Assembly (NCBI GenBank): GCA_022644775.1
Contig: JALCHN010000001.1
Span: 186,001-250,000 of the forward strand
Reading direction: 5' to 3'
DNA: 64,000 nucleotides
DNA from: Eggerthellaceae bacterium
GTDB lineage: Bacteria; Actinomycetota; Coriobacteriia; Coriobacteriales; Eggerthellaceae
The notes under the pieces are model-generated. The model saw only the letters and a list, made by a program, of their open reading frames with translations, was not told the origin of the DNA and made no database searches. The translations under genes were made by a program, and so were the position numbers. Position 1 is the stretch's first letter. Each line of letters opens with the position of its first letter. Below are positions 37,831 to 51,956 of this stretch, piece after piece.

Positions 37831-40800
37831 CGTCGATTACCAGTCAGAACGGCACTGCTCCAAAACCACGGACGACATCGCGGCGATAGCGACCGGTTTG
37901 ATTACCAGTCAGAACGACACTGCTCCAAAACGGCCAGAGCATGGGCTTGAGCCCTGCAGAGGTTTGATTACCAGTCAGAACGACACTGCTCCAAAACTTA
38001 TTGTTCTGTTCTGTACTGTACTGTTCGTTTGATTACCAGTCAGAACGACACTGCTCCAAAACCGTTCATGAGACTCCTTCCTTAGCCCACAGGTTTGATT
38101 ACCAGTCAGAACGACACTGCTCCAAAACCCTTTCGTTCTGTGGACGGCAATTGCGCTAGTTTGATTACCAGTCAGAACGACACTGCTCCAAAACCTGCCC
38201 TCATGCTCAACCGTGTCGTTGAGAGTTTGATTACCAGTCAGAACGACACTGCTCCAAAACCTGCTCCTTAACCTTGTTCGCCATGAAGTCGTTTGATTAC
38301 CAGTCAGAACGACACTGCTCCAAAACTTCTCTACACGGCGGCGTGCTCGCTGTGCAGTTTGATTACCAGTCAGAACGACACTGCTCCAAAACCCGAACAA
38401 GATCTTCGAGCCCGTTGCGAGCGTTTGATTACCAGTCAGAACGACACTGCTCCAAAACTCCTGCCTGCCAACGGTGATCACGAGCAACGTTTGATTACCA
38501 GTCAGAACGACACTGCTCCAAAACCCCTTCCGGGTCGCGTTTCGTAGTCTCGTTGTTTGATTACCAGTCAGAACGACACTGCTCCAAAACGTCGGTGCGT
38601 GTGCGCACGTCGCCGTTGTGTTTGATTACCAGTCAGAACGACACTGCTCCAAAACTCCACCACCCTCGCGCCGCAATTCGAGCAGTTTGATTACCAGTCA
38701 GAACGACACTGCTCCAAAACGCCCGGGATGCTCGACACCGTGTTAATCAGGTTTGATTACCAGTCAGAACGACACTGCTCCAAAACCCCGCGCGACTGCG
38801 TCGTTGCTCTGGTTGAGTTTGATTACCAGTCAGAACGACACTGCTCCAAAACCTATACGAGGAATGGTGCGAGCACAACGGGTTTGATTACCAGTCAGAA
38901 CGACACTGCTCCAAAACCGATCAAGCATCGAGCTCTCCGATTCCCGGTTTGATTACCAGTCAGAACGACACTGCTCCAAAACAGATTATCGCGACGTTTT
39001 TAACCCCGTCATGTTTGATTACCAGTCAGAACGACACTGCTCCAAAACGCACTGAGTTCACGCAGGACTTCAAGCGAGTTTGATTACCAGTCAGAACGAC
39101 ACTGCTCCAAAACTCCACCACCTTCGCGCCGCAGTTGGGGCAGTTTGATTACCAGTCAGAACGACACTGCTCCAAAACCACGGAGGACGAGAACGGGAAC
39201 ATGACCGGTTTGATTACCAGTCAGAACGACACTGCTCCAAAACACCGAGAAACGGGTCCAACTAGTCACATCGGTTTGATTACCAGTCAGAACGACACTG
39301 CTCCAAAACCGCGACTACGAACAGGAGGAATCATGAGCGTTTGATTACCAGTCAGAACGACACTGCTCCAAAACCGCCACGTGCGCCACCGCTCCGCGTA
39401 CGCGGTTTGATTACCAGTCAGAACGACACTGCTCCAAAACCCTAACTATTTCGCCTCCGACAGGAAGGCGGTTTGATTACCAGTCAGAACGACACTGCTC
39501 CAAAACAAAGTCTCGAATGACTTTGAAAATCGAAAGTTTGATTACCAGTCAGAACGACACTGCTCCAAAACGACGGCAATACGTCATTCAGGTGCTCAAA
39601 GTTTGATTACCAGTCAGAACGACACTGCTCCAAAACCGCGGCGCTCGCTCCAAACCTGGTACACGTGTTTGATTACCAGTCAGAACGACACTGCTCCAAA
39701 ACCAGAATTTCGCTCATCTGTACCTCGTCATGGTTTGATTACCAGTCAGAACGACACTGCTCCAAAACCCCAGGAGCAGGTGGACGAGATCGTGAAGGTT
39801 TGATTACCAGTCAGAACGACACTGCTCCAAAACGTTTATTCGGTTGTTTGCGTTTGGCTAGTAGTTTGATTACCAGTCAGAACGACACTGCTCCAAAACC
39901 CACGGCACGGCGGGGACCACCGACCACTGTTTGATTACCAGTCAGAACGACACTGCTCCAAAACGTGTAGAACCGCTCCCCGATGAGCACCACCGTTTGA
40001 TTACCAGTCAGAACGACACTGCTCCAAAACCCAAGGTGTACTCGCACAAGTGCGTTGCGGTTTGATTACCAGTCAGAACGACACTGCTCCAAAACCAGCT
40101 TGTATCGCTGCGCCGCGCTGCTGCGGTTTGATTACCAGTCAGAACGACACTGCTCCAAAACGCGTACCCGTTCCACGTCGGGTGGTCGTGAGTTTGATTA
40201 CCAGTCAGAACGACACTGCTCCAAAACTAATAAAAGCCATGATGTCCCGAAATGTAGTTTGATTACCAGTCAGAACGACACTGCTCCAAAACTAGCACCC
40301 GTCCTTCCCTAGCTTCCTCTTAGTTTGATTACCAGTCAGAACGACACTGCTCCAAAACAGGTCATACGCGATTTCGGCATAGTCGAAGTTTGATTACCAG
40401 TCAGAACGACACTGCTCCAAAACCCATAGTGTTAATCCTCCTTGGATTCGTAAGTTTGATTACCAGTCAGAACGACACTGCTCCAAAACCAACCCGCGAT
40501 TTTGACGCACGCAACCCCTGTTTGATTACCAGTCAGAACGACACTGCTCCAAAACCACCACGCGCGCACGGGGGAGTGGTTGTCGGTTTGATTACCAGTC
40601 AGAACGACACTGCTCCAAAACCGCTCGATGCGCAGCGCGCTAAAGGCAAGGGTTTGATTACCAGTCAGAACGACACTGCTCCAAAACTTCGCGAGAGTCG
40701 GAAGAATCGTTAAATAGTTTGATTACCAGTCAGAACGACACTGCTCCAAAACCAATGAGGCCATCCGTAAGATGCGCCTGAGTTTGATTACCAGTCAGAA

Positions 40801-43179
40801 CGACACTGCTCCAAAACCATGCCGTCGACGGTGGACTTCGCCGCGTGTTTGATTACCAGTCAGAACGACACTGCTCCAAAACCAAGCGCTGCGTGCGCCC
40901 GAATCCGGGCAGTTTGATTACCAGTCAGAACGACACTGCTCCAAAACGAAAAGCTTGTGGCCGTGACGTAGCGTTTCGTTTGATTACCAGTCAGAACGAC
41001 ACTGCTCCAAAACCGCGCGCGGGGTTTGTCGCGACGGCGCAAGGTTTGATTACCAGTCAGAACGACACTGCTCCAAAACCATTGCATGCTTTTGAGCCAA
41101 GCGGTGAGGGTTTGATTACCAGTCAGAACGACACTGCTCCAAAACGCGAAATGGATACGAACGAGCAGCGAGCGGTTTGATTACCAGTCAGAACGACACT
41201 GCTCCAAAACAAGACGAGTGCTGGTTCGCGTTCCGCCGCAGTTTGATTACCAGTCAGAACGACACTGCTCCAAAACCGCGTATCGCTTCGCCGAGCAGGC
41301 GCGACTGTTTGATTACCAGTCAGAACGACACTGCTCCAAAACTAGTCTAGCCGTGGCTGCGATTGGTGACCTGTTTGATTACCAGTCAGAACGACACTGC
41401 TCCAAAACAGCGATGGCGCTGAAGCGATAGCCGTAGCCGTTTGATTACCAGTCAGAACGACACTGCTCCAAAACTACTATTACGGGATGAAGTACCGTCT
41501 TGGGTTTGATTACCAGTCAGAACGACACTGCTCCAAAACGGTATCGGGCGTACATCACCTTGGGATGGGTTTGATTACCAGTCAGAACGACACTGCTCCA
41601 AAACCAGAAGGTGGAGCGCTCGGACGTGGTCAAGGTTTGATTACCAGTCAGAACGACACTGCTCCAAAACCTAGTAGCGGTGCCGGCTAGCGACGTACCG
41701 GTTTGATTACCAGTCAGAACGACACTGCTCCAAAACCCACATAAGGGCCTCGTCGTCGCGCACTGAGTTTGATTACCAGTCAGAACGACACTGCTCCAAA
41801 ACTTTCGCGTCCCCCTTATAACACGCGCGCGTGTTTGATTACCAGTCAGAACGACACTGCTCCAAAACCTCGGATAAACGCGCTCCAAATACCATCCGTT
41901 TGATTACCAGTCAGAACGACACTGCTCCAAAACGACTTGTTCGACTTGTAAACGTGCACCGAGTTTGATTACCAGTCAGAACGACACTGCTCCAAAACTA
42001 TGGAAGCGGAATGGACTGGGGCGAACAGTTTGATTACCAGTCAGAACGACACTGCTCCAAAACTACCGGGCTGCGTGCCTGAAAGAATCCGTCGTTTGAT
42101 TACCAGTCAGAACGACACTGCTCCAAAACTGATGTTGCAGGCGGATTCAATCAGGCCTGGTTTGATTACCAGTCAGAACGACACTGCTCCAAAACTGTCC
42201 CACAGGACTAGCACCCTGGCTAAGGTTTGATTACCAGTCAGAACGACACTGCTCCAAAACCATTCCGTCGACGGTGGACTTCGCGGCGTTGTTTGATTAC
42301 CAGTCAGAACGACACTGCTCCAAAACTCTGTATTCCGGTACGCCCGGGTCCGGCAGTTTGATTACCAGTCAGAACGACACTGCTCCAAAACTGTTCCGGC
42401 AGCGGCAGTGCGCATCGACAGTTTGATTACCAGTCAGAACGACACTGCTCCAAAACCCATGTCCGCTTTTGTGAGGGCGAAGACCGTTTGATTACCAGTC
42501 AGAACGACACTGCTCCAAAACTCCGCCCGCTGTGGCAGTCCCAATGGCGCAGTTTGATTACCAGTCAGAACGACACTGCTCCAAAACCAGAATTGAGGGC
42601 TACATGTCAGACGTCTAGTTTGATTACCAGTCAGAACGACACTGCTCCAAAACATTGCAGACCACCCAGAGATTGCGCGGTAGTTTGATTACCAGTCAGA
42701 ACGACACTGCTCCAAAACCATACCCATGAGTCACGGCCCACTCGTTGAGTTTGATTACCAGTCAGAACGACACTGCTCCAAAACCGATCGCGCTCTTTCT
42801 CTGCGCCTACCGCGGTTTGATTACCAGTCAGAACGACACTGCTCCAAAACCACTGCGCTGCCCCGCGTCCATCTGGCAGGGTTTGATTACCAGTCAGAAC
42901 GACACTGCTCCAAAACCGGATGCCCGTCACACCCATGTTGGTGAGCGTTTGATTACCAGTCAGAACGACACTGCTCCAAAACCACCACGCCCGCACTAGC
43001 AAATGGCTCTAAGTTTGATTACCAGTCAGAACGACACTGCTCCAAAACCGCGAGACGTGCGGCGATTGCTATTGGAGGTTTGATTACCAGTCAGAACGAC
43101 ACTGCTCCAAAACCGCTCTCCAATCTCCGAAGTAGTTTGCGCAGTTTGATTACCAGTCAGAACGACACTGCTCCAAAAC
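37831..43179 (-). CRISPR. Type II-A CRISPR array, 82 repeats and 81 spacers
   Basis: The 36-nt repeat begins GTTTGATTACCAGTCAG and ends ACACTGCTCCAAAAC on the plus strand; spacers are 29-30 nt. I count 82 repeats by position. Read on the minus strand the repeat starts GTTTTGGAGC, matching the type II-A pattern, so crRNAs are transcribed from 43179 toward 37831. The repeat at 37831-37866 is degenerate (CGTCGATTAC at its left edge and GGCACTG inside), marking the old, leader-distal end. The other repeats look identical. csn2 lies directly at the leader side. Two spacer pairs are near-duplicates (see findings). Confidence 0.99.
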
Positions 43180-43918: not shown

Positions 43919-44250
43919 AGAATCAGGAGCTCCTCTGGAGTATCCACCTCATCGAATTCGCTCCGTTCCCCCGTTACATACGTCATCGTTTCGAATTGCC
44001 GCTCCGTCACCTTCAGGACCTGCACCAGCCCTCGTGGCGGTCGGTACTTCTTCATGCGCACAATCGCCGCGTCAGCGGCAGCGTCGGTGACGACGAGCTT
44101 GACGTACACCGATTCCTGCATCATGAGAAACCCCTCTTTAATGAGATTCTTCCGAAACTGTCGGTAATCTTTTCGCTGTTTCGCCGTCTCGACGGGCAAA
44201 TCGAAAAAGCATACGAGCCGCATGTACCTCCCCCACTCCATCGAGCTCAT
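43915..44250 (-). CDS. cas2: Cas2
   Basis: A 111-residue partner of Cas1 in spacer integration. It has a ferredoxin-like fold: YMRLVCFFDLPVETAKQRKD carries the conserved Asp, then LIKEGFLMMQESVYVKLVV. The start at 44250 overlaps the cas1 stop (ATGA). An internal ATG at 44223 (MRLVCFF) is closer to the usual start and may be used instead. cas9-cas1-cas2-csn2 all overlap, so they are one transcript. Confidence 0.96.
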   Translation of the reverse strand: MSSMEWGRYMRLVCFFDLPVETAKQRKDYRQFRKNLIKEGFLMMQESVYVKLVVTDAAADAAIVRMKKYRPPRGLVQVLKVTERQFETMTYVTGERSEFDEVDTPEELLIL

Positions 44251-45125
44251 GGGATATCAAAGCTTTCGATTTCATCGACCGATATCTTCTTGTTGAGAGC
44301 ATTAATGCAGTCCTGCACATACAGGCTCACGACGGAATGGAGCTTATAGGATCCGCCACGATAGGCAAGCTGCGTATTGCCCACATCGACAAGTGTGCGC
44401 TTCTCGTCTTTCCCAAACGAGCCGCTCACGTACGTGCATACCAAGCGGTCGACGATGGGCCGAAACGGCTCCATAAAATCGCACGCGAGGTTAAGTTGGT
44501 TGAACTCGTTTCTATGGTTGACCCCCACCTGCGTAAGATACCCTCGCGCTGCAATTTCCCGGCTTACCATCGAAAGCAATATGGCATAGCCATAGTCCAA
44601 CCCTGCGTTTACCGCACAATCGGTACTGCGATTGAAATCCGGCCCGAAAAGCGCGCTGAAGTAGATACGAGCCGCTTGCGCCTCGCGATTTGTCACGTCA
44701 CCCGACCGCACTTCCAGCGCAGCCCCATGCAACGCCCTTGCTTCCTTTAGTAGGTCGTTGTCCTCCAATACGCGCGCTTGTTGAAAGATCTTGTCCTTCA
44801 CGACGCGCTGCCAAACGCGCTTTTTGATTGGAAGGCCCCATTCGAGCTGCTCATTGACGCGCGCACTCACGTTGTGCGCACCGTAGAGCGGCAAGTACTG
44901 TCCCACAGGATTGTGCTTTTCATCCGACACGACGAGGGGAATCTTGCTCTTCGCAAGTTCCGCCAATAAGTAGGCGCTCATCATCACCTGTTCGGTTCCA
45001 AGAACGAGCGACGAAATCTCCGATAGGTGAATCTTCGTCGTGCCGTCCTGCTGTCGGACGCAAAGATATCCAGACTGATACGAACAGCGACAGGGGTTTT
45101 CGATCAAGACCGTCCTAAAGGCCAA
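44247..45125 (-). CDS. cas1: Cas1 integrase (type II)
   Basis: The integrase that inserts new spacers at the leader end. The 292-residue protein starts MAFRTVLIENPCRCSYQSGY. The catalytic Glu lies in the NREAQAARIYFSALFG helix, and the His and acidic pair are in GVNHRNEFNQLNLACDFMEP. Length is standard for II-A Cas1 (about 290). It overlaps cas9 by 11 nt and cas2 by 4 nt. Confidence 0.97.
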   Translation of the reverse strand: MAFRTVLIENPCRCSYQSGYLCVRQQDGTTKIHLSEISSLVLGTEQVMMSAYLLAELAKSKIPLVVSDEKHNPVGQYLPLYGAHNVSARVNEQLEWGLPIKKRVWQRVVKDKIFQQARVLEDNDLLKEARALHGAALEVRSGDVTNREAQAARIYFSALFGPDFNRSTDCAVNAGLDYGYAILLSMVSREIAARGYLTQVGVNHRNEFNQLNLACDFMEPFRPIVDRLVCTYVSGSFGKDEKRTLVDVGNTQLAYRGGSYKLHSVVSLYVQDCINALNKKISVDEIESFDIP

Positions 45126-48100
45126 TTTCCTGCCGCCTTTCGAACATGCCCGTCACCGATTGATCGATGAAAGCTGTTTGCTTGCCTGAACTCAATTCCT
45201 TACTGAAAGTTAACTGGATTTTCCCAGCAAATGAAGGGCCGTTAATCAACTTTAGATTGGCAACATTCTTCTGAGCATTTACTAGATTCAGAATTTCATG
45301 AATTATTTGCTGCTTGTCGCCTTCGCACAAGGAATAGAACGCATTAGCTCGTTCCACGATTCTCAACAGACCTTCCTGCCTTGTTGCATACGTGTGGAGG
45401 AAACGCAACAACACCTCGAACGCCTCGTCCAAAACGGATCCATATCCCGTAGGATCATCAGCTTCAATCGCTTCAGCCTCGGCAAGGCTAAAGCACGGCT
45501 CAATCGCGTTACGTACTTCCTTATTGCCGCGAATGTAGAAGCGCTCTCCGTCAATTTCTATCAGCTGGTCCTGAAGAATCTTCTTTCGCACAATCGATTC
45601 AAATGTAAGGCCCTCGTCTCTCGCAAGCTGCTCGGCATACCCCGACAGCGAGAGCTTGCCGCGCTTAATACGGGAAACAACAGAAACGGGAGCCCCCGCA
45701 TAACGCAGCACGCTTCCCTTGGGACCCGTTGCTTTGTACACGAAGAAATAGGCGTTCTTTAAACTCGAATAGCCTCCATACCGAGCGGGGTCAAGACCGC
45801 CCTTCAGGGGAATTGTCGGCTTAGTCCTCCCGCTTTTCGGTGAATAGATCGTCGCGTCCCAGAAAGGTCCCGTTTCCTCACTCGGCATCCGCGAGATGAA
45901 GCACTGGCGATAGTTCATGAACTTCTTGATGCGCGCAACTTCCGCATCTGCATCCCACGTATCGCGGAAAATCTCACCGGTCTCTTTACTGAATCCGGAC
46001 GTGAGGAAGCTCTGCACGATGAACGAAGCATCTTCGGGAAGGCGCTTGGTCTTTGCGTACCGCTCTGCCTGTTCGCGAATGTACTTTCGAATCACATGCT
46101 GAAGCGCCACCGGGTTATCGAACACGATGCTATGCCTCAGCTCGATGAAGCGGCCCATCTCTTCTGCAAGATACGCATCGTGCGCATGATGGAAGTCATT
46201 GGCGATACGGGATTTAACCAACCCACGACGTACGCGCAGCTGATGGGACAGGCTCGCCTTAATCGACCGCACGTTGGTTTCTGGATAACGTTCCTGCAGC
46301 ATCGTGCGCACGAACTTAACTACTTGGCTCGTTTCAACGATTTGCCGATTAATAAAGCCCTTCATCTGCGCGTTGGAAATAGTGCCGCGCATAAGATTGT
46401 TGAACTTTTTCCTTCCCATCAATCCAGCTTCGTATAGAGCCCGCCACGTGGGACTCATCTTTCTGCGAATTGATTCACTGAGCAATAGGGAGTCTGTTTT
46501 CCGCTGATTCTCTTCAGCTAGGACAAGCGCCTTGTTCTCGAAGCTATCGTCCTTCGTATAGGACTGCGGAATAATATGGTCCACTTGGTAGGTCGAAAGC
46601 TTCCTGATATCAAGCGGCGCACCAGAATAGAGCGATTTACCGTTCTGCATGAAGTAGAGAACGAGGCGTTCGTTATTGAATTCTGCAGACGACCGGCTCG
46701 CGAGCTCTTTCTTCACGCTTGCGTCCGCTTCGGCACCAAGTTTCTTCAGAGCTTCTTTTAAAGCGTCATAACGTTTTTTCGTTCGCTGGCCGCGCTTCTT
46801 TACGTCGTCGTCTCGCGTCGTTTCAATGTAAATGTTTGCCGGCGCGCATCCCGTAATCGAAACGATTTCATCAACGATTTTCAGCGCTTGGTTAACGCTC
46901 CTGCGCAGAGCGGGAGAACCGGGCATCTCATCAATGCCTAGCTCCCCATGGGATTCCAGCCATTCTTTGTTCGCTTGATCAATCGCTTTCTCAAACCCCA
47001 AATTTTCATCGCGAAGCACTTCCATGAGCACCATCGCTTGGCCGGGATGCACGTTGTTGGGGTCCCCTTCCTCGAGAATGTCCATAATGGACTTCGCGCC
47101 GTTATCAGTAGGAACCGTTATGCCGGTAAGGAGCCTCTTCGATAGACGACCCCACCCGGTAAAGCGCTTCTTGCATATCTGCTTAATTTGAGCGGGCGAC
47201 AGCACGTCCCCGTAATGACGTTGAATCTCTTCCTTCAAAATGTCGCGATCTTCGAAGAGTGTGTTCCACAGGATAAGGGTCTCGACCATGTCCAGCGTCT
47301 GGGCATCGAAATCTTCTGCACCGAGCACCTTTTTGAAGAAGAGGTACGAACCAGGCTTAGACTCGAACCCCGTCTCCCCTTGGCCACCCTTCACATGGGC
47401 ATGCAGCGCGATATTCTCGCTCCTAAGCCACTGCTCTACTTTCTTGTAAGATACCGACCCCCGCGTAAACAGCTCATCGAAGATGCGCACCCGAAGATCA
47501 TAGGAGAAACGATGCCAGTCATCGCCATCCTGAGTCCATCGCGCCCCGTTCAACTCGTTCAACACGCAGAACTTTTCGTACAGAAGCGAAGCGCGCGGCA
47601 GAACAGGCTCGCCCTGGAGATACGTGCACGTACCCGTCATGCGCTGAATGAACGCAGCCGCACTCGCATGCTTGTCGATGACCTCTTCCCAGTTCCACGG
47701 TCGAATGGGTACATTCTCTTTGCCAGGATTGCGCACGGACCAGGCAAATCTGGTCTGACCATTTGCAACTGCCGCGTTCTTCTGCGTCAAGGGCCCCACA
47801 TAATAGGGAATTCTGAATGTAACGAGAGACTCTATTTTCTTCTCGTGTTCTTTGAGGAAGGGATAATACCTGCCCTGGTTGGCGATGATCGCCTTCATCT
47901 CTTCAAGATGAAGCTGGAAGGGAATGCTGCCGTTATCGCTTGTTTTCAGGCGACGGAGGAACGTCTGGTCGTCGAAACGCGTCATCATCTTGACGTATCG
48001 TTCGTCCGATTCGGCACCCGTGCCCTTGAAGAGATTCTTCACTTGAGCTGCAAAGTCGTCGTAGGAAAGTTTGGTGGTGCCCAAATTGTAGAGCGTGTAG

Positions 48101-49218
48101 CCCTTGGCCTTCGATGGGTCATAGTCTTTCGATAAGGCGCCTTCATAGTGCGGCCCGCGGAAAAACTCGTCGTAACGAGCGGGCGCATACTGTCGGACCA
48201 GTCTTTTGAGCATGCGCAAATCTTTGCCGTATTGCTCGTATTCGTTGACCTTGCAGTACGAAATCGTACGCCCGTCGCCCCCTTTCAGGATGCCCTGAAG
48301 GACAAAGGAAGAGTACGCCGCCAGCAAAGAATCGAAGAGCTCGATGCCCTCATCGGGAACCGAGTTGCGAAATTCCTCGACGGCAGCATCGTTCGAGAGA
48401 TCGAAACTCGGATCGTCGGTCTCAAGGGCAAAGACCTTCTTCAAGTCGGCTTTATACCCGAGAACCGCACTAATGACCTGTTTCGCAATACGCTTATGGG
48501 CGGCATCTGTTTCGAGCCCGAGAAACGGAATCGCCTCATCACGCATGGTACCTCGGGATAACGATGCATTTTCCAGAACGGCACGCAGTTTTGCAGGCTT
48601 TGGCTCGCAAGCGCTTTCGGGGTCGATTTCAGCCATCCATTCAGCGAGAGCATTGCAAAGACGCTCCACCGATTCTTCCATGTTGGCGTTCTTCGCACTC
48701 AAGCGCTCGTTATCTTGATGCAGGAAATTCCCGCGCGTTTTCACGATGTTGTGGAGAGCTAGATATACCAGTCGCAAATCTGCTTGCTCGTCGGTCTCCA
48801 TGAGCCATACGCGAAGATGGTAGATTGTCGGGAACTTTTTATAGTAGTCGCGCTCGTTAAAGTTTTCGTCGTTGAACAGAGGCCAATGATACGCAGCGTA
48901 CTGTGGGTCGCGATCATCGGGCCACAGTTGAGACTGGCGAAGCCGGACGAAGAATTCCGGATCAACATCCGCCATCGGTTCCAAGAAAAACTCTTGCAAA
49001 AGGTCGAGACGTTGCCGACGTCTATCGTAGCGACGGCGCTGCCCTCGATGCACGCGTGCATCGGCTGCAGAGCCAGCGCTCGGGAACAGCCTGCTTCCCC
49101 AAGTCGGCTGTTTCTTGAAATGGTAGAGCTCCCCATTTTCGTCGGTGACGGCCCACCCCACCGAACCTGTGCCGAGGTCGAGACCGATGTTGTAGTTTTC
49201 CGCATGTCTCAGTTGCAT
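45115..49218 (-). CDS. cas9: Cas9 endonuclease (type II-A)
   Basis: The RNA-guided double-strand endonuclease; 1367 residues, almost the size of SpCas9. Nuclease residues are intact: RuvC Asp14 (YNIGLDLGTGSVGWAV), Glu799 (IYIETTRDD), Asp1014 (FHHAHDAYL), and HNH His881 with Asn904 (YQVDHIIPQSYTKDDSFENK). An Arg-rich bridge helix follows RuvC-I (VHRGQRRRYDRRRQRLDLLQ). The C-terminal end FIDQSVTGMFERRQEIGL aligns with the end of SpCas9. The two PAM-reading Arg (R1333/R1335 in SpCas9) do not appear conserved, so the PAM may differ. The ATG at 49218 has only a weak GGGAC box upstream. GC is lower than in flanking housekeeping genes. Confidence 0.98.
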   Translation of the reverse strand: MQLRHAENYNIGLDLGTGSVGWAVTDENGELYHFKKQPTWGSRLFPSAGSAADARVHRGQRRRYDRRRQRLDLLQEFFLEPMADVDPEFFVRLRQSQLWPDDRDPQYAAYHWPLFNDENFNERDYYKKFPTIYHLRVWLMETDEQADLRLVYLALHNIVKTRGNFLHQDNERLSAKNANMEESVERLCNALAEWMAEIDPESACEPKPAKLRAVLENASLSRGTMRDEAIPFLGLETDAAHKRIAKQVISAVLGYKADLKKVFALETDDPSFDLSNDAAVEEFRNSVPDEGIELFDSLLAAYSSFVLQGILKGGDGRTISYCKVNEYEQYGKDLRMLKRLVRQYAPARYDEFFRGPHYEGALSKDYDPSKAKGYTLYNLGTTKLSYDDFAAQVKNLFKGTGAESDERYVKMMTRFDDQTFLRRLKTSDNGSIPFQLHLEEMKAIIANQGRYYPFLKEHEKKIESLVTFRIPYYVGPLTQKNAAVANGQTRFAWSVRNPGKENVPIRPWNWEEVIDKHASAAAFIQRMTGTCTYLQGEPVLPRASLLYEKFCVLNELNGARWTQDGDDWHRFSYDLRVRIFDELFTRGSVSYKKVEQWLRSENIALHAHVKGGQGETGFESKPGSYLFFKKVLGAEDFDAQTLDMVETLILWNTLFEDRDILKEEIQRHYGDVLSPAQIKQICKKRFTGWGRLSKRLLTGITVPTDNGAKSIMDILEEGDPNNVHPGQAMVLMEVLRDENLGFEKAIDQANKEWLESHGELGIDEMPGSPALRRSVNQALKIVDEIVSITGCAPANIYIETTRDDDVKKRGQRTKKRYDALKEALKKLGAEADASVKKELASRSSAEFNNERLVLYFMQNGKSLYSGAPLDIRKLSTYQVDHIIPQSYTKDDSFENKALVLAEENQRKTDSLLLSESIRRKMSPTWRALYEAGLMGRKKFNNLMRGTISNAQMKGFINRQIVETSQVVKFVRTMLQERYPETNVRSIKASLSHQLRVRRGLVKSRIANDFHHAHDAYLAEEMGRFIELRHSIVFDNPVALQHVIRKYIREQAERYAKTKRLPEDASFIVQSFLTSGFSKETGEIFRDTWDADAEVARIKKFMNYRQCFISRMPSEETGPFWDATIYSPKSGRTKPTIPLKGGLDPARYGGYSSLKNAYFFVYKATGPKGSVLRYAGAPVSVVSRIKRGKLSLSGYAEQLARDEGLTFESIVRKKILQDQLIEIDGERFYIRGNKEVRNAIEPCFSLAEAEAIEADDPTGYGSVLDEAFEVLLRFLHTYATRQEGLLRIVERANAFYSLCEGDKQQIIHEILNLVNAQKNVANLKLINGPSFAGKIQLTFSKELSSGKQTAFIDQSVTGMFERRQEIGL

Positions 49219-49247
49219 TGAATCGTCCCATCCATCCGTGCTACACT
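49218..49247 (+). promoter_or_regulatory. Predicted tracrRNA promoter
   Basis: TTGAAT (49218-49223) and TACACT (49242-49247) are 18 nt apart. The -35 box overlaps the cas9 start codon on the opposite strand. Predicted transcription start is around 49254. Confidence 0.6.
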
Positions 49248-49253
49248 GACACT

Positions 49254-49345
49254 GTCTTGATACCAGTCAGGACAACACTGCGAGTCAAAATAACGGCTTA
49301 GCCTTGAATGTCCGATTACGGACGCCACGTAGGTGGCAATTTTTT
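49254..49345 (+). ncRNA. tracrRNA
   Basis: The anti-repeat TTGATACCAGTCAGGACAAC with the following ACTGCGAGTCAAAAT pairs with the minus-strand repeat. The lower stem is GUUUUG:CAAAAU, the bulge GA/GAGU, and the upper stem GCAGUG:CACUGC, the same geometry as SpCas9 guide RNA. After a nexus-like segment (AACGGCTTAGCC) come two hairpins, GTCCG-ATTA-CGGAC (49310-49323) and GCCAC-GTAG-GTGGC (49324-49337), then a T-run (49340-49345). It is divergent from cas9, with a second terminator downstream. Confidence 0.93.
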
Positions 49346-49353
49346 GACTTGCC

Positions 49354-49377
49354 AAAGAGCCCTTCGGGGCTCTTTTT
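49354..49377 (+). terminator. Strong intrinsic terminator after tracrRNA
   Basis: AAAGAGCCC and GGGCTCTTTTT enclose a TTCG tetraloop. It backs up the tracrRNA's own terminal hairpin; read-through from tracrRNA ends here. Confidence 0.85.
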
Positions 49378-49518
49378 CTTTGCCCTTCCCTTGCACCAAT
49401 TCTAGCTAATCTTTGCTGTCACCTGCGCATTTGGAGCAGGTCGTAGCATTTTGCCAGGCGACTGGCGTACTACGCGAAACAGAAAAGCTATTAGCGTTCA
49501 GTATGCACCATTTTCGGC

Positions 49519-49563
49519 TTTTACGTGTTCCATTATTGCGTTGTGTTAGACCACTTTGGATAA
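49519..49563 (+). repeat. Left terminal inverted repeat
   Basis: About 45 bp with scattered mismatches against the right end. The core TGCGTTGTGTTAGACC is identical in both ends. Confidence 0.8.
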
Positions 49564-49636
49564 GTGTCCTGCACGCAGTACACGCGACGGGGCCCCGGTT
49601 GCGACAATTCCATCATCAGGAGAGATGGAGGTTGCA

Positions 49637-50719
49637 ATGGAAGACGTGCTCACCCAGCTGACGAGGCAGTTCCTCCCGCAGATGACGGCTGCCGAGAAGA
49701 GCAGGGTCCTGAGATCGCTCAAGGCGCTGATAGACGCGGAGCTTTTCGAACTCGCGGCAAGCGAGGGGGCGGAAGACGATCCCGACAGAGCCTGCCCCTG
49801 GTGCGGCTCCCCGCATTACGTGAAGAGGGGGCGAGACGGGCGCGGCCGTCAGCGGTTCCTCTGCCGAGGGTGCGCCAGGACCTTCACCGACGCCACCATG
49901 CGCATCTTCTCCACCACCAAGCTCGACAGGTCGGCCTGGATGAGGTTCGCGGAGTGCCACGTGGACATGCTCCCGCTGCGCGAGTCGGCGGAAAAGTGCG
50001 GCGTGTGCCTCAAGACGGCGTTCTTCATGCGCCACAGGCTGCTCGAGGCCATGGCCAAGCGCATGCCCGCCTTCCGCGTGGAGGCCGGCGGCGGGGCCGA
50101 GCTCGACGAGTGCTTCTTCAGGGAGAGCTTCAAGGGAAACCGCTCCAGGTCGGAGTCCGGCATGCCCAGGAAGCCCCGCACAAGGTCGCAGGGAACCGAC
50201 GGGCACGAGAAGATATGCGTGCTCACCGGCATCAACGACGCCGGCGACATCTTCTACGAGATCGCGGGGAGGGGCGGCCTCGACGAGGCGGCAGCCAGGG
50301 AGCTGCTCGCCGACAAGCTCGCGGTCGGCGCGATAATCTCGACGGACCGTGCGCACGTGTACCGCCGCGTCCTGCCCGCCCTCGGCGTCGGCGCGCACAT
50401 CGCCAGCAAGAGGGAGGAGCACGCCATCAACAGGGTGAACAGCCTCCACTCCCAGATGAGGCACTTCATCGGCAGGTTCCGGGGTGTCTCCACGAGACGC
50501 CTCGAGAACTACCTCGCCTGGTTCAAGTGGACATGGTGCTTCAAGGTCCGCAGGAGCGCGGACGAGCTCGCCGAGCTCATAGTGAGGCAGGCAGCCCGCG
50601 GCACGTACGAGAAGACCTGGCGCCAGTACAAGGTGACCCCCTATCCGTTCTACGAGTACTGGATCAAGCAGGCGAAATGGGACTCGCGTGCGCGGAGGGC
50701 CATATACGGCGTGGCGTGA
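49637..50719 (+). CDS. IS1595-family (ISXO2-like) transposase
   Basis: A 360-residue transposase. The N-terminal zinc ribbon has Cys53/56 and Cys76/79 (CPWCGSPH and CRGCARTF). The DDE/N-type core follows: Asp157 (GAELDECFFRESFKG), Asp237 (IISTDRAHVY) and probably Asn268 (INRVNSLHSQM), with a basic FIGRFRGVSTRRLENYLAWF helix. GGAGG is 5 nt before the ATG at 49637; an upstream ATG at 49625 lacks one. Coding is intact, so the element may be active. Its GC is high, unlike the passenger gene. Confidence 0.93.
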   Translation: MEDVLTQLTRQFLPQMTAAEKSRVLRSLKALIDAELFELAASEGAEDDPDRACPWCGSPHYVKRGRDGRGRQRFLCRGCARTFTDATMRIFSTTKLDRSAWMRFAECHVDMLPLRESAEKCGVCLKTAFFMRHRLLEAMAKRMPAFRVEAGGGAELDECFFRESFKGNRSRSESGMPRKPRTRSQGTDGHEKICVLTGINDAGDIFYEIAGRGGLDEAAARELLADKLAVGAIISTDRAHVYRRVLPALGVGAHIASKREEHAINRVNSLHSQMRHFIGRFRGVSTRRLENYLAWFKWTWCFKVRRSADELAELIVRQAARGTYEKTWRQYKVTPYPFYEYWIKQAKWDSRARRAIYGVA

Positions 50720-50790
50720 TGTCCAGGGCGGTCTGGCGCAGCGCATCTGCGGCAAGCGCTGAAGTCGTGCCCCGATGCAAATAGCAACAG

Positions 50791-51285
50791 CTAGCGATAT
50801 TCTTCGGGAACGTCGAAACCGTACTCACGGCATAGGAGCATGACATCGTGGGCGTCGTGCTCGTCATGCTGATAGCCCAAGTGAAACAACAGCTGGCTTT
50901 CGGGGTCGATGCACGACACCTCCACCTCGCCGATGCGCCCCCTCCCCGAAAAGACCTCCCCGGGAAAACGATCTCCCTGATACAGAATATCGCCATTCTC
51001 GGCGAAATCGAAGCAATGCAGGTCGACGATGCGCCCCGCCTCGTCTTGCCACACCGTGTGATCTTCGGTGGTGAAAGATGCAGCCACCTCGGAAAACCCC
51101 TCATCAGCAATTAGATCCACGAACCTTTGGTAATCCCCGCGCTGAACGAACAGGTCGATGTCGTTATGAGCCCTGGTCTCACGCCCGACAAGCGCATCGA
51201 CGCCCCAGCCGCCATCAAGGTATACGCCAATGCCCGCACCTGCGGAAAGGCCGATTATCCAACACGCATCATCCTTGGTGACCAT
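50791..51285 (-). CDS. Lincosamide nucleotidyltransferase-like protein (Lnu(A)/Lnu(C) type)
   Basis: Lnu enzymes inactivate lincomycin and clindamycin by adenylylation. The 164-residue product matches the family length. It shows the nucleotidyltransferase fold: VYLDGGWGVDALVGRETRAH followed by NDIDLFVQ supplies the metal-binding Asp pair (residues 42 and 44). IVDLHCFDFAENGDILYQ and CIDPESQLLFHLGYQ are the later conserved blocks. AAGGAG is 7 nt from the ATG. It is a cargo gene inside the IS1595 element, convergent with the transposase. GC is lower than in the transposase, suggesting separate origin. Resistance itself is untested. Confidence 0.82.
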   Translation of the reverse strand: MVTKDDACWIIGLSAGAGIGVYLDGGWGVDALVGRETRAHNDIDLFVQRGDYQRFVDLIADEGFSEVAASFTTEDHTVWQDEAGRIVDLHCFDFAENGDILYQGDRFPGEVFSGRGRIGEVEVSCIDPESQLLFHLGYQHDEHDAHDVMLLCREYGFDVPEEYR

Positions 51286-51325
51286 AGGAGCTCCTTCGCT
51301 TTCGCCTGCTATCTAAGCAAGAAAG

Positions 51326-51331
51326 ATTATA
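51326..51331 (-). promoter_or_regulatory. -10 box for the lnu-like gene
   Basis: A perfect TATAAT on the minus strand lies 40 nt before the ATG. The -35 would fall in or beside the right terminal repeat (TTTGGA, about 15 nt away). Confidence 0.45.
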
Positions 51332-51346
51332 GGAAAAGTCCCAGTA

Positions 51347-51388
51347 TCCAAAGCGGTCTAACACAACGCATTATTGGGACACGTAAAA
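51347..51388 (-). repeat. Right terminal inverted repeat
   Basis: Complement of the left end with few mismatches. It contains TCTAACACAACGCATTATTG. Confidence 0.8.
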
Positions 51389-51956
51389 TCTTGTAGAAGC
51401 ATAAGATGGATAGTTTGTCTCGAAAATTCCGTGCAATGGAGCAGCATGCAACAGTTTGAGATTCAGCTATCCCGTATGCATGCCTACTGTCAAGACGAAC
51501 TTGCATAAAGGAACCTCGTCTGTGTCAAGGGAACTGTCCTGGCACTGCTCATCCTGCAAGGAAATTGCGGGCCGAACTGAAAACAGAGATTCGAAAACTC
51601 GTTTCGCAGGGTTGTTGCACGCGAAATCTGGCGGGACCGTGCGCGTTGAGCGGAATCGTGCAAGGACCGTGCGAAACGAGCGGAAATCCCCTGTTCGGCC
51701 TGCATATTCCGTGCACTTTGAGCAGATGGCCCCGGTTTCGGGGCTCTCTCTCGAAATCGTGTGCAGCGGGCATGCGAAACGAGCAAGAAACTGCAGCAGC
51801 CGTGCGAAACGAGCAGCCGATTGCAACGATCGTGCATTACGAGCGTGCGAACTGCGGCAGCCCTGCGAAACGAGCAGCGACCGCGCAACAACCCTGCGAA
51901 AAGAGCAGCGACCGCGACGCACGTGCAAAATGAAAAAGGGGGCGCACGGGCCCCCT
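51389..51956. repeat. Gene-free field of degenerate ~30-bp repeats
   Basis: No credible gene is seen in this stretch. It contains at least ten copies of a motif close to CCGTGCGAAACGAGCAG, at about 51429, 51636, 51666, 51709, 51771, 51800, 51831, 51861, 51892 and 51921. From 51771 onward they recur every 29-32 nt. Related copies lie left of the IS element (49423-49439 and 49471-49487), so the element appears to have inserted into the field. A small GGGGGC/GCCCCC hairpin at 51938-51955 closes it. Confidence 0.6.

What the first reader, a model, noticed from the sequence alone, without database searches (positions are those of the whole stretch)
49205..49345. Compact divergent cas9/tracrRNA control region with overlapping promoter and anti-repeat
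The predicted tracrRNA -35 box (49218-49223) overlaps the cas9 start codon. The whole cas9 upstream region is therefore tracrRNA sequence on the other strand, and cas9 must be transcribed through or from within the tracrRNA gene. This invites mutual interference or guide-based autoregulation like the long tracrRNA of S. pyogenes. The existence of such control here is inference.
Basis: partly seen in the sequence, partly recalled or inferred. Interest (0 to 1): 0.6.

Follow-up and report, generated by a model that had tools for sequence, protein, structure and literature searches.

The report
tracrRNA gene packed against cas9
In this gut bacterium and dozens of its relatives the gene for a small helper RNA of the Cas9 defence system sits back-to-back with cas9 with only about 35 bases between them, so Cas9 must be switched on from inside or behind the RNA gene; the layout is real and ancient, but there is no sign of the guide-RNA self-regulation known from Streptococcus.

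Summary
The compact divergent cas9/tracrRNA region is real. The locus is type II-A (cas9-cas1-cas2-csn2, then an array with 81 exact repeats), on the minus strand. The tracrRNA is on the plus strand: extended -10 TGC-TACACT (49239-49247), predicted start about 49254, terminator 49354-49375. The -35-like TTGAAT overlaps the cas9 ATG by one base; that overlap is incidental. The packing is conserved: 39 of 44 Coriobacteriia loci keep ATG-to-anti-repeat-core at 62-80 nt, and 41 of 44 have the extended -10 at the same place. There is no room for a complete cas9 promoter outside the tracrRNA gene, so its -35 must lie inside it or beyond it; I could not locate it. tracr-L-type guide autoregulation is not supported: the gap leaves no room for a tracr-L leader outside cas9 codons, repeat mimics are rare and not conserved, and self-matches are not above shuffles. 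No tested window spacer targets the region. The notable extra finding is that the tracrRNA is predicted to be born folded. A 5'-terminal hairpin with compensatory changes (29 of 29 family loci) and a long-range helix (25 of 29) mask the anti-repeat. cas9 mRNA starting beyond the terminator would be fully antisense to tracrRNA, as with P2cas of group B Streptococcus.

The parts
45115..49218 (-). cas9 (1367 aa, type II-A); ATG at 49216-49218; first gene of cas9-cas1-cas2-csn2
   Evidence: TIGR01865 849 bits; Pfam Cas9_REC, Cas9_PI, HNH_4, RuvC
44247..45125 (-). cas1, overlapping the cas9 end
   Evidence: TIGR03639 285 bits
43915..44250 (-). cas2
   Evidence: TIGR01573 67.7 bits
43229..43918 (-). 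csn2 (defines II-A)
   Evidence: TIGR01866 116.5 bits
37896..43179 (-). CRISPR array, 81 exact 36-nt repeats, read as GTTTTGGAGCAGTGTCGTTCTGACTGGTAATCAAAC on the cas strand
49218..49223 (+). TTGAAT, weak -35 of the tracrRNA promoter; shares one base with the cas9 ATG
   Evidence: only TTnnC conserved at this spacing in relatives
49239..49247 (+). extended -10 TGC-TACACT of the tracrRNA promoter
   Evidence: TGNTANNNT at the same place in 41 of 44 loci, profile
49253..49274 (+). 5'-terminal hairpin H5 of tracrRNA (TGTCTTGAT-ACCA-GTCAGGACA); right arm and loop are anti-repeat
   Evidence: H5 in 29 of 29 family loci with varied, complementary arms; 5 of 7 pairs with double changes
49262..49291 (+). 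anti-repeat, pairing with the crRNA repeat; core GAGTCAAAAT at 49282-49291
   Evidence: repeat family D3; repeat:anti-repeat duplex about -41 kcal/mol
49280..49290 (+). 5' arm of closing helix HC (GCGAGTCAAAA)
   Evidence: P(HC) at least 0.68 in 25 of 29 loci
49295..49303 (+). nexus hairpin GGCTTAGCC
49310..49337 (+). two hairpins GTCC..GGAC and GCCAC-GTAG-GTGGC
   Evidence: 96-97% of cells paired, 8 of 9 pairs with double changes
49342..49352 (+). 3' arm of closing helix HC (TTTTGACTTGC)
49354..49377 (+). tracrRNA terminator hairpin and T-run
49224..49236 (-). ribosome-binding region of cas9 (weak here, GGATGGGACG); in many relatives AAGG.. whose complement lies in or next to the tracrRNA -35
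   Evidence: SD of at least 4 nt in 41 of 44 loci, overlapping the tracrRNA -35 hexamer in 12 compact loci; none of at least 4 nt in the window itself
49395..49400 (-). candidate distal cas9 -10 TAGAAT just outside the tracrRNA terminator (unproven)
   Evidence: TAGAAT also in the closest relative L009; no family-wide enrichment

Best explanation
This is an ordinary type II-A tracrRNA gene placed divergently and packed directly against cas9, a layout inherited throughout the Coriobacteriia. An extended -10 promoter of about 36 nt fills the whole space between the cas9 start codon and the tracrRNA start, so its -35 side lies on the cas9 ribosome-binding site. The cas operon must therefore be transcribed from a promoter whose -35 lies inside the tracrRNA gene or beyond it. 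The two promoters occlude each other in the first case; in the second the cas9 leader is a full antisense of tracrRNA. tracrRNA regulates nothing by guiding Cas9 to this region. Instead it folds on itself as soon as it is made: a 5'-terminal hairpin exposes the loop UACCAG, complementary to the near-invariant CUGGUA of the crRNA repeat, and a long-range helix covers the lower-stem anti-repeat. crRNA opens this fold when it pairs. Shown from sequence: layout, conservation, covarying hairpin and helix, absence of self-target signals. Inferred: where cas9 transcription starts, mutual interference, and the masking role of the fold.
For: Locus identity. Compact gap in 39 of 44 loci and extended -10 in 41 of 44; ATG to -10 distance 23-26 nt in 35 of 38 distinct compact loci. 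No conserved second promoter element in the gap. No tracr-L signal and no spacer match. In L016 (single-contig genome) an ORF on the cas9 strand ends about 20 nt past the tracrRNA terminator, which leaves little room for an outside promoter there. H5 in 29 of 29, at least 8 contiguous bp in 25 of 26 loci with a known repeat; HC in 25 of 29; 66 cells with double changes against 18.7 +/- 4.5 shuffled, 0 of 500. A cas promoter at the 3' end of tracrRNA is established in group B Streptococcus (P2cas, PMC12216829).
Against: No RNA data. The cas9 promoter was not found: cas9-strand hits beyond the terminator are not enriched over shuffles (z 1.1), and the candidate inside the anti-repeat (TTGACT-17-TGGTAT) lacks the key A of a -10. 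Five loci have longer gaps (107-169 nt), so the packing is not essential. HC is missing in the four most divergent family loci. H5 and HC are predictions of the free RNA; Cas9 or RNase III may see another fold. RNAalifold on its own did not choose H5 or HC.
Confidence: 0.68

Rival explanations
1. Guide-based autoregulation as in S. pyogenes: a long tracrRNA isoform (natural single-guide RNA) starts inside cas9, carries a short guide and directs Cas9 to the cas9 promoter.
For: Same gene order as S. pyogenes; mechanism established there (PMC11417352). A weak repeat-mimic GTTTTCCGC exists upstream of the tracrRNA in the window.
Against: Gap of only ~35 nt in 39 of 44 loci. 10-mers shared between possible 5' extension and promoter region: 4 against 11.1 in shuffles. 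The mimic sits in codons for HAENY and is not kept in relatives. The test had no positive control: the duplex test on the S. pyogenes sequence was not discriminating.
Confidence: 0.06
2. Distal promoter: cas9 starts just outside the tracrRNA terminator (about 49390), runs antisense through the whole tracrRNA gene, and the two RNAs can pair and be cut by RNase III, so each titrates the other.
For: P2cas of group B Streptococcus lies at the tracrRNA 3' end and is sufficient for cas transcription. Good -10 boxes (TATACT) at this place in L013, L026, L031 and TAGAAT in L008/L009. In the window the tracrRNA terminator has no long T-run in the cas9 direction.
Against: No enrichment family-wide. In L016 an ORF ends about 20 nt outside. 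L028 has a terminator that looks bidirectional (six T in the cas9 direction).
Confidence: 0.35
3. One shared, roughly symmetric -10 element drives both genes in opposite directions: tracrRNA from 49254 and cas9 from about 49236, with an 18-nt leader that just holds the ribosome-binding site.
For: TANNNT read from the other strand keeps A at -11 and T at -7 in every locus. TTGACT lies 16-17 nt upstream on the cas9 strand in many loci. It would explain why ATG to -10 distance is fixed at 23-26 nt.
Against: The base that would be -12 on the cas9 strand is mostly C instead of T (53% G on the tracrRNA strand). Individual scores are poor (8.7 for the L014/L016/L018-L021 group). Simple packing explains the distance as well.
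Confidence: 0.2
4. Nothing regulatory: the packing is genome compaction, and cas9 is expressed weakly by read-through or from scattered promoters.
For: Neighbouring genes differ between genomes and no conserved cas9 promoter was found.
Against: The gap is conserved to within a few bases across families whose Cas9s share about 50% identity.
Confidence: 0.2

Closest known systems
S. pyogenes tracrRNA/Pcas region with tracr-S and tracr-L (Workman et al.; PMC11417352)
   Same: II-A, divergent tracrRNA upstream of cas9; short tracrRNA with anti-repeat, nexus, terminator; lower-stem anti-repeat predicted to pair with a 3' segment in the free RNA there too (sequence from memory)
   Different: No second upstream tracrRNA promoter, no room for one, no guide or target; no separate Pcas between tracrRNA and cas9; strong 5'-terminal hairpin
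Group B Streptococcus P1cas/P2cas (PMC12216829)
   Same: A cas promoter located at the 3' end of tracrRNA transcribes cas9 antisense through tracrRNA, the sole one where P1cas is deleted
   Different: Here there is no room for a P1cas in the compact loci; the distal promoter is not demonstrated; CovR control not tested
tracrRNA of type II CRISPR systems in general (PMC3936727)
   Same: anti-repeat, nexus, 3' hairpins, Rho-independent terminator
   Different: 5' hairpin masking the anti-repeat conserved with compensatory changes in the family

Membership tests
Type II-A CRISPR-Cas | cas9, cas1, cas2 and csn2 in one operon plus array and tracrRNA | tested here: met
tracrRNA | anti-repeat complementary to the local repeat, own promoter, terminator | tested here: met
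   no transcript data
tracr-L natural single-guide autoregulation | 5' extension with guide and repeat mimic ahead of the anti-repeat | tested here: not met
   only occasional, non-conserved mimics; extension would lie in cas9 codons
tracr-L natural single-guide autoregulation | matching target with PAM in the cas promoter | tested here: not met
   10-mer matches below shuffle level; PAM of this Cas9 unknown
P2cas-like distal cas promoter | promoter for cas9 at the tracrRNA 3' end | tested here: inconclusive
Symmetric bidirectional promoter | overlapping -10 boxes on both strands with starts about 18 bp apart | tested here: inconclusive
   A and T positions kept, -12 T not
crRNA-guided (spacer) self-regulation of cas9 | array spacer matching the control region | tested here: not met
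   55 of about 80 spacers tested, best match 19 of 30, longest exact run 10 nt

The most novel reading that the evidence does not exclude
The compact region is a coupled switch. One shared promoter core, or an antisense cas9 leader, makes tracrRNA and Cas9 output mutually exclusive or mutually titrating, and the tracrRNA is born self-masked so that only crRNA, through its CUGGUA loop, can open it.
Probability: 0.15. Interest if true: 0.6.

Novelty: new variant of a known kind. Interest (0 to 1): 0.36.

Why it matters
Most knowledge of how cas9 is controlled comes from streptococci, where a separate promoter and a long tracrRNA lie between the two genes. Most loci sampled from a whole bacterial class have room for neither, so they must control Cas9 another way. 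They offer a natural test of whether antisense overlap with tracrRNA limits Cas9 levels. The self-masked tracrRNA also matters for anyone who builds guide RNAs from these Cas9s: the full-length tracrRNA would have to be unfolded, or the single-guide design trimmed.

Tried and rejected
(2) Spacer targeting of the control region: rejected for the 55 spacers tested. (3) A family-wide cas9 promoter beyond the terminator: no enrichment. (4) Promoter TTGACT-17-TGGTAT inside the anti-repeat: present almost everywhere, but it follows from tracrRNA conservation and lacks -11A. (5) Looking for a plasmid copy of the S. pyogenes region as a positive control: only partial matches to the 3' part of the tracrRNA, in E. 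coli and Klebsiella plasmid records. (6) Lactobacillaceae plasmid loci fetched as outgroups were not analysed further. (7) Rfam: nothing above the gathering score. (8) Literature on Coriobacteriia tracrRNA or on masked anti-repeats: nothing found in the open library.

Full report
What is there. The window belongs to an Eggerthellaceae genome; the nearest relative with this locus is Hugonella massiliensis, Cas9 90% identical. The minus strand carries cas9 (45115-49218), cas1, cas2 and csn2, all recognised by curated families, followed by an array with 81 exact 36-nt repeats at 37896-43179. This is type II-A. Upstream of cas9, on the plus strand, lies the tracrRNA: anti-repeat, nexus GGCTTAGCC, two hairpins and a terminator hairpin with T-run ending near 49377.

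The observation. TTGAAT (49218-49223) does share one base with the cas9 ATG (49216-49218). On consensus alone this promoter is unremarkable (8 of 12; not listed). Comparison with relatives makes it secure. I fetched the upstream region of Cas9 relatives from the same family (29 usable loci) and from other families of the class (20 loci); 44 were usable in all. 41 have TGNTANNNT at the same place. Aligned on it, the profile reads [C/T]GTGnTAnAnT with a weak TTnnC 17 nt upstream. 39 of 44 are compact (ATG to core 62-80 nt). In 35 of 38 distinct compact loci the first T of the -10 lies 23-26 nt from the ATG. The -35 abuts the ATG in most loci, overlaps it in a few, and coincides with the complement of the cas9 ribosome-binding site in 12. 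So the overlap with the start codon is a detail; the packing is the feature. Five loci have longer gaps of 107-169 nt, so it is not obligatory.

Consequence for cas9. A sigma70-type promoter plus a ribosome-binding site needs about 50 nt before the ATG, and the tracrRNA starts at about 36. Hence at least the cas9 -35 lies within the tracrRNA gene, or the promoter lies beyond it. I could not decide which. Cas9-strand promoter scores beyond the terminator are not enriched over shuffles, although L013, L026 and L031 have TATACT there and the window and its nearest relative share TAGAAT. In L016 an ORF on the cas9 strand ends about 20 nt outside the terminator. Inside the tracrRNA gene there is almost always TTGACT with poor -10 boxes. 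A shared symmetric -10 keeps the A and T positions but usually has C where T is expected. The distal option has a precedent: P2cas of group B Streptococcus lies at the 3' end of tracrRNA and drives the cas operon (PMC12216829).

Autoregulation. In S. pyogenes, tracr-L starts at a second promoter, carries an 11-nt match to Pcas and acts as a single guide (PMC11417352). Here any such RNA would begin inside cas9 codons. Over 29 loci, 10-mers shared between the possible 5' extension and the region where a cas promoter could lie number 4, against 11.1 on average in block shuffles. Repeat mimics are rare and not conserved. The mimic in the window, GTTTTCCGC, is the complement of codons for His-Ala-Glu-Asn-Tyr and is not kept in most relatives. 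Of the 55 spacers tested (about two thirds of the array), none matches 49001-49600 with more than 19 of 30 positions or a 10-nt exact run, which I read as chance. The k-mer test lacks a positive control because no streptococcal locus could be fetched; the argument from lack of space is independent of it.

The tracrRNA fold. Unexpectedly, the 5' end of the tracrRNA forms a hairpin (H5) in all 29 family loci, usually 8-11 bp, with the loop around UACCAG. Its arms vary widely (for example TGTCTTGAT/GTCAGGACA, ACATCTTGA/TCAAGATGT, CAATCTGAT/GTCAGATTG, CGTTGCTCT/AGAGTGACG) and stay complementary. The right arm region matches the complement of the local repeat at 81% of positions; the left arm, in register, at only 40%, though a bulged UUGA match remains possible. 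H5 is therefore not a mere by-product of repeat complementarity. A second element (HC) pairs GCGAGUCAAAA of the anti-repeat with UUUUGACUUGC just before the terminator. It is predicted with probability of at least 0.68 in 25 of 29 loci and absent in the four most divergent; it shows compensatory changes in L018, L024 and L026. The whole structure has 66 cells with double changes against 18.7 in shuffles (0 of 500 shuffles reach it). That control does not remove shared ancestry; the slid-partner control in the same call, which does, falls to 8-20 such cells. RNAalifold without guidance does not choose H5 or HC, partly because a 6- or 7-nt loop shifts the left arm in the alignment. The most economical reading is that free tracrRNA is self-masked and crRNA invades it, starting at the loop; that is inference.

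Verdict. The architecture is confirmed and conserved. The guide-based feedback is not supported. The system is a compact variant of a well-known arrangement, with two open and testable points: where cas9 starts, and what the masked tracrRNA is for.

Noticed in passing
49519-51388: IS1595-family element with 44-bp terminal inverted repeats (91%), a transposase (49556-50719) and a passenger lincosamide nucleotidyltransferase-like gene (Lnu(C)/(D)-like, below the curated cut-offs, 50791-51285), inserted about 140 bp beyond the tracrRNA terminator; absent at this place in the nearest relative. No target-site duplication was seen on inspection.
   Followed up: partly
L090 (G236:C62): A locus in which the tracrRNA promoter, the cas9 ribosome-binding site and the usual ATG appear deleted, leaving the anti-repeat directly next to cas9 codons: a possible natural knock-out.
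   Followed up: no
49280-49290 and 49342-49352: Inverted repeat within the tracrRNA gene (closing helix) that would sequester the lower-stem anti-repeat in free tracrRNA; conserved in most relatives.
   Followed up: yes
L010, L011, L012, L017, L084: Relatives with 40-105 nt extra between tracrRNA promoter and cas9; these could have regained a separate cas9 promoter.
   Followed up: partly
51598-51909: Cluster of imperfect repeats around CGTGCGAAACGAGCAGC in direct and inverted orientation next to the IS element; nature unknown.
   Followed up: no
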